A stretch of DNA of 64,000 nt from Gulbenkiania mobilis (GTDB lineage: Bacteria > Pseudomonadota > Gammaproteobacteria > Burkholderiales > Chromobacteriaceae). Within the stretch, counting starts at the first letter, position 1. Every line of letters starts with the position of its first letter. Below, piece after piece: positions 200 to 63,379 of the stretch. The translations under genes and the position numbers were made by a program. The DNA lies in contig SMDA01000004.1 of assembly GCA_004346645.1 (NCBI GenBank), forward strand, positions 278,255-342,254, given 5' to 3'. The notes under the pieces were generated by a model. That model had not been told where the DNA came from and ran no database searches. It was given only the letters and a program-made list of their open reading frames with translations.

Positions 200-3100
200 A
201 TGGAGCTCAACCAGGATCGCCTGTTCCGACTGCAGTTTGCCGGCACGCTGGCCATCGTGGTGCTTCTTGCCGTAACGCTGGCCAGTTACTTCATGTGGCA
301 ACACCGGGCCGACTTCCGCGATCAAGAGGCCCGGCTGGCAGCCGAACACGCCGCCGAGGCCCGACAGCACCTGCAGGCCTTTGGTGATCACGGCGCGCTG
401 ACAGTGGCGGGCATTGCCGCCCGCACCCGTCCGATGCTGGCCGCACAGCTGCGTCAGGAAGGCGATCAGGCCTACAGCCTGGCGCAATCCCTCTGGACCC
501 GCGAGGCGGGCCGCAGACCGCCCAAAGAGGTGGCCGCGCTGATCGCCAGCACGCTGCGCCAGTTCCGCCGTGCCGACAGCACCCGTGTTTACTTTATCCT
601 TGATGAGCAGGGCCGCAGCATCCTCACCCCCTCCACCCCTCAGCTGGAGGGCAGCGCGCTGCTGACCCACCCCGATCCACGCGTGCCGCTGGTCGTCCGT
701 AATTTCCTCGCATCGACCCGCGCCCACCCCGGTGGGGGCGTGGTGGAGTACCGCTGGTTCATGCCTGCACAGCAGATGATGTGGCCCAAAATGGCCTATG
801 TGCGGCATTTCGCACCGCTGGGCTGGGTGCTGGGCAGCAGCGAATTCCTGCACGATGCAGAAGCCGAGGTGCAGGCCCAGGCCACCGACATCCTGCGCCG
901 CATGCGCTATCCCAACAGCGACCTGTTCCTGATCGACAACCAGGGCGTGGTACGGCTCTATCCGCCCCATCCGGAATACGAAGGTCGCCATTACATCGCC
1001 CTGCCCTCGGCCGTGCGGCACGACATCGTCAACTTCATCGCCCAGGGCAGCAACGGGCGCTTCTTCATCCAGGCGGCCAGTGCAGACAGCCCCACGATGA
1101 TGGCGTACGTGCGGCATGTGGCGCCCTGGGGATGGACAGTGGTGGCACGCACGCCCTACGCCGCCAACGACATCGATGCGGCCGCCCACCGTGCGCTGCA
1201 GGCTCACACCAAGTCGCGCGTGCTGGCAACGGTGGTGCTCACCCTGCTTGCCCTGCTGTCGGCCGGGCTCTTCAGCTGGCTGCTGAGTCGGCGCGTGAGC
1301 ACACTGATCGGCCGCTACCGTCACCGGCTGGACCGCAGCCACGCCATCCTGCACCAGCAGGCCGACGCCTTGATGCTGACCCGCTTCCTGATGGACAAGG
1401 CAGGCGAGGCCATCTGCCTGAGCGCGCCGGACGATACCCTGGCCTATCAGAACGAAGCCTCGCGCCGGCTGCTGGATACGCTGGGGCTGACGATGCCGGC
1501 CTACATGGCCCTGCTCTTCGGCACCCATCCCGATGGCGAGCACACCGTCGCGGTACTGGCGTGCGATGGCCGCACCCGCCATCTGGAAGTTACGCTGACC
1601 GGGCTGGAGTACGAGCACACCGCCTACCGCTGTGCCACGGTGCGCGACATCACCGAGCGCGTGCTGGCCGACCGGCAGAACCGACTGGCGGCACGGGTGT
1701 TCGAGGCCAGCAACGAAGCGATTCTGATCACCGACGCGTCCAACCGCATCCTGGCCGTCAACCGGGCCTTCTGCGACACCACCGGCTACACCGAAGAGGA
1801 GGTGCTGGGACAGACGCCCGCCTTGCTCGCCTCCGGCCGCCACGACGCAGCCTTTTACCGCAAGATGTGGGCCGCCCTGGGCGAGCGCGGCCAGTGGTCG
1901 GGCGAGATCTGGAACCAGCGCAAGGATGGTGACATCTTTCCCGAATGGCTCAACATCAGCGTGCTGAGCGACGAGGGCGGCCGGCCGATGCATTACATCG
2001 CGCTCTTCACCGATATTTCGGAGCGCAAGGCGCGGGAAGCGCAGCTGCAGCACATGGCCGAGTACGACATCCTCACCGACCTGCCCAACCGCGCCCTGAT
2101 CGGCGACCGCCTGCAGCAGGCGATCCATGCGGCCGAGCACGCTGGCCAGCGGGTGGCGGTACTGTTCGTGGACCTGGACCATTTCAAGAACATCAACGAC
2201 ACCCTCGGCCACGCCTGTGGCGACATGTTGCTGCAGCAAGTAGGGCGGCGGCTTTCGGGTTCGGTACGGGCGATGGACACGGTTGGCCGAACCGGGGGCG
2301 ACGAGTTCGTAGTGGTACTGCCGATGCTGAGCCAGGCCGAGGAGGCGGGGCAGGTGGCCGAGCGCATGCTGGAGGTGCTGCAAGCCCCCTTCACGCTGGG
2401 CACGCACACGCTGGTGATCACCCCCAGCATCGGCATCAGCCTGTACCCGGACGATGGCGGCACGATGGAAGCTCTACTGATGAATGCAGACTTGGCGATG
2501 TATCACGCCAAGGCCAGCGGCCGGAACACCTACAGTTTCTACGCCCAGCCGATGAACGCCCGCGTGTCCGAACGGCTGCTGCTGGAGAACCGCCTGCGCC
2601 AGGCGCTGGACCGCGGCGAGCTGGTGCTGGCCTACCAGCCTCAGTTCGCGCTCGACGGCGTGACGCTGACCGGCTGCGAGGCGCTGTTGCGCTGGACGGA
2701 CCCGGAATACGGCCCCATCCCACCGGATCGTTTCATTCCGGTAGCGGAGGAGTCCGGGCTGATTGTGCCGATCGGGCGCTGGGTACTGGAAGAGGCCTGT
2801 GGCCAGGCCGCGCTGTGGCAGGCTCAGGGGTGCGCCCTGAAGGTGGCGGTGAACGTGGCGGCACGGCAGCTGGCCGGGCCGGAGTTCGCGGCCGACGTGG
2901 CACGCGCGCTCTCGCTCAGCGGCCTGCCCGGCTCGCTTCTGGAGATTGAGGTAACCGAAAGCACACTGATGGCCGACCTGCAGCACACGGCCCGGCAGCT
3001 GGAACAGATCAAGGCGCTGGGCGTGGGGCTGGCGGTGGACGACTTCGGCACCGGCTACTCCAGCCTCGCCTACCTCAAGCGCTTTGCGCCAGATACGATC

Positions 3101-3361
3101 AAGATCGACCGTTCGTTCATCACCGACCTGCCGCAGGACAGCGAGAACGCTGCCATCGTCTCGGCGATCATCCAGTTGGCCAACGCCTTGGGCATGCAGA
3201 CCCTGGCCGAAGGGGTGGAAACCCACGACCAGCGCCGCTTTCTGGCCGATCTGGGCTGCCATGCCCTGCAGGGCTTCCTCACCGGCCGGCCCCAGCCGCC
3301 CCACACGCTGGAAGCCCTGCTGGCCACACGGTTGGCCGAAGCGTCCGCCACAACGCCCTGA
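200..3361 (+). CDS. Membrane sensor with PAS-PAS-GGDEF-EAL (cyclic di-GMP turnover)
   Basis: This is a 1053-aa inner-membrane signalling protein. A membrane segment (about residues 13-33) is followed by a large periplasmic Cache-like region with two similar MAYVRH-type repeats, then a second membrane segment (about 340-362). Two PAS domains follow (about 390-490 and 500-610). The GGDEF domain has an intact GGDEF at 699-703 and the EAL domain an intact EAL at 827-829 with DDFGTGYSS from 947. Both catalytic signatures are present, so it could both make and degrade cyclic di-GMP; which activity dominates cannot be read from sequence. A TATACT -10-like element lies at 168-173, before the ATG at 200. 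The gene is divergent from rnpB and convergent with tamB. It carries two copies of the dispersed GTTGGCCGAA word (2282, 3331). Confidence 0.93.
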   Translation: MELNQDRLFRLQFAGTLAIVVLLAVTLASYFMWQHRADFRDQEARLAAEHAAEARQHLQAFGDHGALTVAGIAARTRPMLAAQLRQEGDQAYSLAQSLWTREAGRRPPKEVAALIASTLRQFRRADSTRVYFILDEQGRSILTPSTPQLEGSALLTHPDPRVPLVVRNFLASTRAHPGGGVVEYRWFMPAQQMMWPKMAYVRHFAPLGWVLGSSEFLHDAEAEVQAQATDILRRMRYPNSDLFLIDNQGVVRLYPPHPEYEGRHYIALPSAVRHDIVNFIAQGSNGRFFIQAASADSPTMMAYVRHVAPWGWTVVARTPYAANDIDAAAHRALQAHTKSRVLATVVLTLLALLSAGLFSWLLSRRVSTLIGRYRHRLDRSHAILHQQADALMLTRFLMDKAGEAICLSAPDDTLAYQNEASRRLLDTLGLTMPAYMALLFGTHPDGEHTVAVLACDGRTRHLEVTLTGLEYEHTAYRCATVRDITERVLADRQNRLAARVFEASNEAILITDASNRILAVNRAFCDTTGYTEEEVLGQTPALLASGRHDAAFYRKMWAALGERGQWSGEIWNQRKDGDIFPEWLNISVLSDEGGRPMHYIALFTDISERKAREAQLQHMAEYDILTDLPNRALIGDRLQQAIHAAEHAGQRVAVLFVDLDHFKNINDTLGHACGDMLLQQVGRRLSGSVRAMDTVGRTGGDEFVVVLPMLSQAEEAGQVAERMLEVLQAPFTLGTHTLVITPSIGISLYPDDGGTMEALLMNADLAMYHAKASGRNTYSFYAQPMNARVSERLLLENRLRQALDRGELVLAYQPQFALDGVTLTGCEALLRWTDPEYGPIPPDRFIPVAEESGLIVPIGRWVLEEACGQAALWQAQGCALKVAVNVAARQLAGPEFAADVARALSLSGLPGSLLEIEVTESTLMADLQHTARQLEQIKALGVGLAVDDFGTGYSSLAYLKRFAPDTIKIDRSFITDLPQDSENAAIVSAIIQLANALGMQTLAEGVETHDQRRFLADLGCHALQGFLTGRPQPPHTLEALLATRLAEASATTP

Positions 3362-62859: not shown

Positions 62860-63379
62860 TCACATCATCCTTCTCGGGTGCAAGAGTCACCCTGCCGTTT
62901 CGGCCAACCTCTACTGTTCGGAAAGCTATGGCCGCATTTGCTCTGCAGGCTATGGTGAAAACCAGCGTGGAAGAAGCCGTTGCCCGACTGACCAACCCGG
63001 TCGGTGCAAAGGAAAAGTCGCCCACGCTCGTGGAAATGCCCACCAGCGCCGGTTGCCGTGTGACCAGCAACACCCTCTGGCTTGCCACCTGCGCTCCGGC
63101 ACTGGCCATACCGTACCAGGCAATCCAACCATTGCTCCAGTCTGCAGCCGTACCGCACGCTGGCGACGAGGCGCCGGAATGGCTGCAGATGGAGACGGTC
63201 TGACCAGTCTCCACCGCTTGGGCCCGAGCCATCATGATGGAACGCGAAAGCTCAGCACTGAGCGAGCGCGCCTGTCCCTTGGCCAGGAACCCTTGTAGGT
63301 AGGGCATGCCCACGGCCAGCAGGATGGCGGCAATCGCCAGCACGACCATCATTTCTATCAAGGTAAATCCGCGGTTCAT
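62846..63379 (-). CDS. fimT: Minor pilin FimT/FimU (GspH-like)
   Basis: This 177-aa prepilin has MNRG/FTLIEMMVVLAIAAILLAVGMPYLQGF and the GspH/FimT pattern LSAELSRSIMMARAQAVETGQTVSIC with WSNGWIAW. FimT-family pilins have been shown to bind DNA in some gammaproteobacteria, so it is a second candidate DNA-contacting pilin here. ATG 63379 follows GGGAG at proper spacing; the GTG at 63385 is too close to it. It is the first gene of the operon. A dispersed-word copy (62899-62908) lies near its 3' end. Confidence 0.92.
   Translation of the reverse strand: MNRGFTLIEMMVVLAIAAILLAVGMPYLQGFLAKGQARSLSAELSRSIMMARAQAVETGQTVSICSHSGASSPACGTAADWSNGWIAWYGMASAGAQVASQRVLLVTRQPALVGISTSVGDFSFAPTGLVSRATASSTLVFTIACRANAAIAFRTVEVGRNGRVTLAPEKDDVSGCS

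What the first reader, a model, noticed from the sequence alone, without database searches (positions are those of the whole stretch)
2281..62908. A 10-12-base word repeated about every 1.6 kb: candidate new DNA uptake sequence dialect
Seen: GTTGGCCGAA (either strand) occurs 34 times and its 9-base core 39 times in 64 kb, in both orientations, in genes and spacers, with extended consensus near GGTTGGCCGAAGC. With G+C near 66% and random order, the 10-mer should occur about 0.1-0.2 times (my estimate). Known: Neisseriaceae carry DUS dialects built on GCCGTCTGAA-like cores, and Pasteurellaceae carry AAGTGCGGT or ACAAGCGGT; those are the only well-established systems of this kind. The core here is different from both. 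Inference: this is a DUS-like signal biasing transformation towards self DNA in another Neisseriales lineage.
Basis: partly seen in the sequence, partly recalled or inferred. Interest (0 to 1): 0.93.

Follow-up and report, generated by a model that had tools for sequence, protein, structure and literature searches.

The report
New self-DNA uptake tag in Chromobacteriaceae
A ten-letter DNA word occurs 1,245 times in this bacterium's 2.87-Mb genome, related genera carry one-letter variants of it, and it is predicted to be an address label that a pilus protein would use to take up the species' own DNA, likely extending this kind of labelling beyond the Neisseria family and breaking its supposedly fixed core letters.

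The parts
2282..2291 (+). word copy 1, GTTGGCCGAA
3331..3340 (+). word copy 2
5292..5301 (+). word copy 3
5736..5745 (+). word copy 4
9156..9165 (-). word copy 5
11908..11917 (-). word copy 6
13462..13471 (+). word copy 7
15580..15589 (-). word copy 8
18660..18669 (+). word copy 9
21677..21686 (+). word copy 10
24155..24164 (-). word copy 11
24685..24694 (-). word copy 12
25877..25886 (+). word copy 13, left arm of an inverted pair
25890..25899 (-). word copy 14, right arm of the inverted pair; no terminator-like site found in 25300-26500
26327..26336 (-). word copy 15
29172..29181 (-). word copy 16
29887..29896 (-). word copy 17
32294..32303 (-). word copy 18
33859..33868 (+). word copy 19
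35896..35905 (-). word copy 20
39612..39621 (-). word copy 21
40726..40735 (-). word copy 22
42022..42031 (-). word copy 23
43399..43408 (-). word copy 24
45653..45662 (+). word copy 25
46971..46980 (+). word copy 26
48193..48202 (-). word copy 27
50028..50037 (-). word copy 28
53048..53057 (+). word copy 29
54822..54831 (-). word copy 30
55535..55544 (-). word copy 31
56405..56414 (+). word copy 32
57706..57715 (+). word copy 33
62899..62908 (-). word copy 34
56517..56966 (-). pilE-like minor pilin; passes the Pfam ComP_DUS cut-off but is taken not to be the comP ortholog (best PDB match PilE). The comP ortholog lies outside the window at G000:C4:113257-113706 (L113:9258-9707)
56980..60825 (-). 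pilY1-like gene (PF05567), context: type IV pilus minor-pilin cluster
60826..61530 (-). pilX-like gene, context
61466..62308 (-). pilW-like gene, context
62311..62859 (-). pilV-like gene, context
62846..63385 (-). fimT/gspH-like gene, context

Best explanation
GTTGGCCGAA is a strand-symmetric word with 1,245 copies in this 2.87-Mb genome, and it most likely works as the DNA uptake sequence of this Neisseriales species, predicted to be read by a ComP-type minor pilin encoded on the same contig. Inferred mechanism: ComP, exposed on a type IV pilus, would bind double-stranded DNA carrying AG-GTTGGCCGAA better than other DNA; pilus retraction would bring that DNA to ComEA and ComEC; DprA and RecA would load it for recombination. 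Tagged fragments would be over-represented among recombined DNA, so new copies of the word would accumulate and spread evenly. When ComP specificity shifts, the genome would drift to a new dialect (AA, AG or CA ending). Where ComP is missing or altered the word is not abundant; whether that is loss or never having had it is not settled. Shown: copy number, symmetry, evenness in the sample, dialects, ComP orthologs and ComEA/ComEC/DprA genes. Inferred: binding, uptake bias and the evolutionary dynamics (RecA was not looked for).
Confidence: 0.88

Rival explanations
1. Chromosome-organising or recombination motif (Chi-like, KOPS/FtsK-like or nucleoid-binding site) spread over the chromosome.
For: High copy number and even spread; a mild excess of the AA form on the G-rich strand, 198:150.
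Against: Chi and KOPS motifs are strongly strand-skewed (recalled); here the counts are 624/621 genome-wide, 51:50 for GTTGGCCGAG and 25:25 for GTTGGCCGCA in samples. It does not predict the AG-DUS-like register, genus-level one-letter switches, or the lack of both an abundant word and a ComP ortholog in g9.
Confidence: 0.05
2. Codon or peptide bias: the word is the high-GC spelling of Leu-Ala-Glu and similar tripeptides.
For: 73 of 159 in-gene copies read xxG TTG GCC GAA, that is Leu-Ala-Glu.
Against: 86 of 159 in-gene copies lie in the other five frames and 55 of 214 copies lie outside predicted genes. The variant ending in GAG, which also spells Leu-Ala-Glu, has 13 copies in G000 against 1,245. 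A relative of the same G+C (G073, 66%) has 1 copy in 200 kb; codon usage itself was not compared.
Confidence: 0.02
3. Dispersed repeat family (REP/BIME-type element or intrinsic terminators) whose arms carry the word.
For: 7 inverted pairs spaced 40 bases or less in 482 kb, including 25877-25899 in the window.
Against: At most 14 of 214 sampled copies are in such pairs. Sequence conservation ends within about 4 bases of the word. No terminator-like site was found around the window pair; the other six pairs were not examined for one.
Confidence: 0.03
4. Methylation or restriction-linked signal (the word holds GGCC).
For: GGCC is a known methylation target (recalled).
Against: Restriction sites tend to be avoided, not enriched (recalled); here enrichment is about 49-fold over an order-4 background. 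A 14-bp non-palindromic consensus is unlike a type II site. No such enzyme was looked for.
Confidence: 0.02

Closest known systems
Neisseriaceae DNA uptake sequences (eight dialects, Frye et al. 2013, PMC3630211; sections 6 and 7 and passages read)
   Same: 10-12-mer at about 900-5,900 copies per genome, both strands, in genes and spacers, some inverted pairs, dialects that follow genera, AG prefix, G at +1, GAA end in the main form, and a ComP-type pilin. King3DUS has C at +9 as the Vogesella-type form does.
   Different: CCG instead of CTG at +6 to +8, and G at +10 in the Crenobacter form; both positions were invariant in the eight dialects. Found outside Neisseriaceae, where that paper found no obvious DUS in five genomes and placed the origin of DUS after the split from Chromobacterium violaceum. 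Lower density: 0.43 per kb here against 1.15-2.1 per kb in the eight f44 samples with DUS or mucDUS.
Neisseria ComP (PDB 5hz7, 2m3k, 2nba)
   Same: Best sequence matches and best Foldseek match; shared LLENAxFxExxY...WPxLP segment.
   Different: One C-terminal cysteine pair and a short loop in place of the long two-disulphide DD region (Berry 2016, PMC4906244, abstract, outline and section 10 read).
Pasteurellaceae uptake signal sequences (AAGTGCGGT / ACAAGCGGT)
   Same: Same logic: abundant short self-DNA tag in a naturally competent group.
   Different: No GCGG core, different sequence, different proposed receptor (PpdA/ComN, PMC12616744, passages read).

Membership tests
Neisseriaceae DUS | One 10-12-mer is the most over-represented word, about 1,000 or more copies per genome | tested here: met
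   1,245 copies; top 10-mer in the 482-kb sample
Neisseriaceae DUS | Both orientations about equally, in genes and spacers, genome-wide | tested here: met
   624/621; 55 of 214 outside predicted genes; present in all 20 further 20-kb stretches sampled; sampled AA copies 198:150 by G-rich strand
Neisseriaceae DUS | CTG at +6 to +8 | tested here: not met
   CCG at those positions in the best register; CTG in all eight dialects
Neisseriaceae DUS | A at +10 in all eight dialects | tested here: inconclusive
   met in the AA and CA forms, not in GTTGGCCGAG of g4
Neisseriaceae DUS | 12-mer register with AG-type prefix | tested here: met
   AGGTTGGCCGAA, AGGTTGGCCGAG, AGGTTGGCCGCA are top 12-mers in the samples (the first is second to GGTTGGCCGAAG); 9 of 12 with mucDUS and simDUS, shuffle P 0.012
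Neisseriaceae DUS | Tagged DNA transforms better than untagged DNA | not testable with these tools
   needs a transformation assay
ComP DUS receptor | Type IV pilin related to Neisseria ComP by sequence and fold | tested here: met
ComP DUS receptor | DD region delimited by two disulphides (four cysteines) | tested here: not met
   Of 23 word-bearing family ComPs, 21 have two cysteines and 2 have three past residue 40 of the extracted stretch. Of 11 f44 ComPs, 10 have four; G238, with published-type DUS, has two
ComP DUS receptor | Binds its cognate word preferentially | not testable with these tools
   needs a binding assay
Natural competence machinery | ComEA, ComEC and DprA encoded | tested here: met
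   In G000: ComEC C12:8422-10194, DprA C2:62409-63059, ComEA-type C3:351541-351729 (sought in G000 only)
Pasteurellaceae USS | GCGG inner core | tested here: not met
   core is TTGGCCGAA

The most novel reading that the evidence does not exclude
A second branch of the DUS code: Chromobacteriaceae read CCG-centred tags (AG-GTTGGCCGAA, -GAG, -GCA) with ComP receptors that lack the two-disulphide DD region, so neither the CTG core nor that region is needed for DUS recognition. ComP-DUS systems predate the split of Neisseriaceae and Chromobacteriaceae and were lost in Chromobacterium, Aquitalea and Paludibacterium-type lineages.
Probability: 0.55. Interest if true: 0.88.

Novelty: new variant of a known kind. 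Interest (0 to 1): 0.82.

Why it matters
The papers I read passages of describe DUS dialects in Neisseriaceae with an invariant, functionally essential CTG core and a DD region of ComP that binds DNA. Here another family has at least three dialects that break the core rule, read (if the inference holds) by ComP orthologs without that region. This gives natural variation for solving how ComP reads DNA, where the 3D structure of the complex is still unresolved. It would move the origin of DUS deeper, make gain or loss of self-recognition in transformation testable across sister genera (Vogesella and Crenobacter with, Chromobacterium and Aquitalea without), and offer a way to spot foreign DNA in these genomes.

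Tried and rejected
The window's own PF16732-positive pilin (56517-56966) first looked like the receptor; its best PDB match is PilE and PF16732 rings in 61 of 61 family genomes, so the family hit alone means little. The better candidate is elsewhere on the contig.

I first read the G032 ComP hit with a TGA as a broken gene (a remark in my notebook entry); the open frame runs to its C-terminal cysteine, so I dropped that.

Remnants of the word in word-free genera (for example 62 and 92 copies of two forms in G016) were not pursued, because codon usage alone can raise such counts.

The Lys/Arg loop correlation is striking (31 of 32 word-bearing rows, 0 of 35 word-free rows; two f41 rows and G300 dropped before the count) but has too few independent changes. 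For most word-free rows the status rests on low counts of these words, not on a k-mer scan. Scanned were three genomes with 160-200 kb, others with 17-57 kb, and four g9 genomes as one 116-kb pool. These scans do show other enriched words, the strongest CCCCTCTCCC in G073 (15 in 200 kb) and TCAGGGTAAA in the g9 pool (10 in 116 kb), both far below DUS density; they were not followed.

The ComP tree has 136 columns and 15 of 67 inner branches starred, so I draw no branching order from it.

Literature searches: 20 of 44 papers listed; 5 of 5; 3 of 3; only 15 of 97 papers holding TTGGCCGAA were listed; 12 of 12; none; 15 of 17; 2 of 2. None that I saw listed describes a DUS in these genera. Supplementary tables could not be opened; Table S1D of Frye 2013, with over-represented 10-mers of Pseudogulbenkiania and others, might contain the word.

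Full report
WHAT IS THERE. GTTGGCCGAA occurs 34 times in the window, 14 on the plus and 20 on the minus strand; shuffles give 0.15. In the whole assembly (2,870,308 bases, 21 contigs) it occurs 624 times forward and 621 times in reverse; the same letters read backwards occur 8 times. [quoted passage not shown] Conservation extends to A-A/G-G before and G after the word and then fades, so the unit is about 14 bp and not a longer repeat.

DISTRIBUTION. Counts in 23 stretches of 20 kb have mean 8.9 and variance 3.7, more even than random (lower-tail p 0.008). With a crude gene finder, 55 of 214 copies lie outside genes although 17% of the sample is non-coding, and in-gene copies use all six frames, with the Leu-Ala-Glu frame most common (73 of 159). 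There are 7 close inverted pairs in 482 kb; around the one in the window (25877-25899) no terminator-like site was found. One stretch has only 3 copies: a 15.3-kb gap (L147:1929-17240) that holds a phage integrase, an N6/N4 DNA methylase and a DUF5906/VapE-like protein. One such gap is weak evidence; my estimate of its chance under random spacing (mean 2.1 kb, 192 intervals) is about 0.13. Against strict symmetry, sampled copies of the AA form lie 198:150 on the G-rich strand (p 0.012), while the AG and CA forms are 51:50 and 25:25.

RELATIVES. The assembly sits in a GTDB family of which 61 genomes are held (itself included). Counts and contig lengths tie handles to names: G002 is JH1-16, G011 Crenobacter oryzisoli, G003 Crenobacter luteus, G016 Paludibacterium purpuratum, G008 Craterilacuibacter sinensis by counts alone, G069 Chromobacterium paludis, G061 Aquitalea magnusonii. 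Genus g5 is called Vogesella-type because the G004 ComP is 94% identical to that of Vogesella sp. EB. The window's own genus is not named by any search. Of 37 family genomes counted for GTTGGCCGAA, seven have 579-2,168 copies, one (84% complete) has 183, and the rest have at most 78; the other 24 family genomes were not counted for this form. GTTGGCCGAG has 1,590 copies in C. luteus and 1,940 in G012, its genus-mate, and at most 165 in the other 59. GTTGGCCGCA has 1,871-2,895 copies in all 13 g5 genomes and at most 58 in the other 48. Ranking finds these as the top 10-mers in 9 of the 10 word-bearing genomes ranked; in G010 it ties for first. In G018 only 7.8 kb was ranked and it was not on top. 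AG plus the word is the top 12-mer in 160 kb of G000, in G012 and in g5; in the full 482 kb of G000 it comes second to GGTTGGCCGAAG. A Chromobacterium-genus genome (200 kb), Aquitalea (160 kb) and a Paludibacterium-genus genome (160 kb) show no word at such density. Of 399 genomes of the order, 386 lie outside the family and none of these exceeds 223 copies of the degenerate word GTTGGCCGMR, against 1,304 or more in the word-bearing family members drawn.

REGISTER. The 12-mer AGGTTGGCCGAA matches mucDUS and simDUS at 9 of 12 positions in the same register (P 0.012 against shuffles over both strands and offsets -3 to 3; the 10-mer alone 7 of 10, P 0.09). In that register CTG at +6 to +8 is CCG. 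Frye et al. report CTG and A at +10 in all eight dialects, and transformation nearly abolished when CTG is changed. King3DUS has C at +9, as the Vogesella-type form does.

MACHINERY. ComEC, DprA and a ComEA-type protein are encoded. ComEC and DprA also occur in word-free relatives, so they permit and do not prove the reading. Four of 61 genomes give no ComEC match over the cut-off; three of them are word-bearing (G009, G083, G084, the first and last 80% and 88% complete).

CONTROL. The same ranking recovers published DUS (DUS, mucDUS, or kingDUS with simDUS) in 9 of 10 f44 genomes sampled; the tenth, at 16% G+C, shows none, nor does one f41 genome.

CONCLUSION. The word is very likely a DUS of a new, CCG-centred class in Chromobacteriaceae. 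Function is inferred. It works like a DUS; because the CTG core and the DD region were tested and not met, I file it as a new variant and not as a ninth Neisseriaceae dialect. The listings show no earlier description (several were capped); one 2024 paper speaks of possible new dialects, all with CTG (passage).

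Noticed in passing
L147:1929-17240 (G000:C4:151929-167240): 15.3-kb word-free interval with phage integrase, N6/N4 DNA methylase and DUF5906/VapE-like protein: a likely integrated mobile element.
   Followed up: partly
window:56517-63385: Minor pilin cluster (fimT, pilV, pilW, pilX, pilY1, pilE-like); a second such cluster with comP lies on the same contig, so the genome has two sets.
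   Followed up: partly
G000 sample, 482 kb: A second form CTTGGCCGAA is strongly enriched (66 against 2.8 expected), perhaps a tolerated +1 variant.
   Followed up: no
G005 (genus g6): Carries 1,368 copies of the word while the five genus-mates counted have at most 36; its ComP has Thr at the Lys site, and GTTTGCCGAA is also enriched (13 against 0.3).
   Followed up: no
L223, L267-L269 (G238): f44 genome with kingDUS and simDUS whose ComP has only two cysteines, so the two-disulphide DD region is not universal among CTG-DUS carriers.
   Followed up: partly
   Followed up: no
window:55569-56432: Conserved 287-aa protein with only weak desaturase/ferritin-type Pfam matches; the best 80 of 359 relatives are 73-87% identical, many from other betaproteobacteria.
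   Followed up: no
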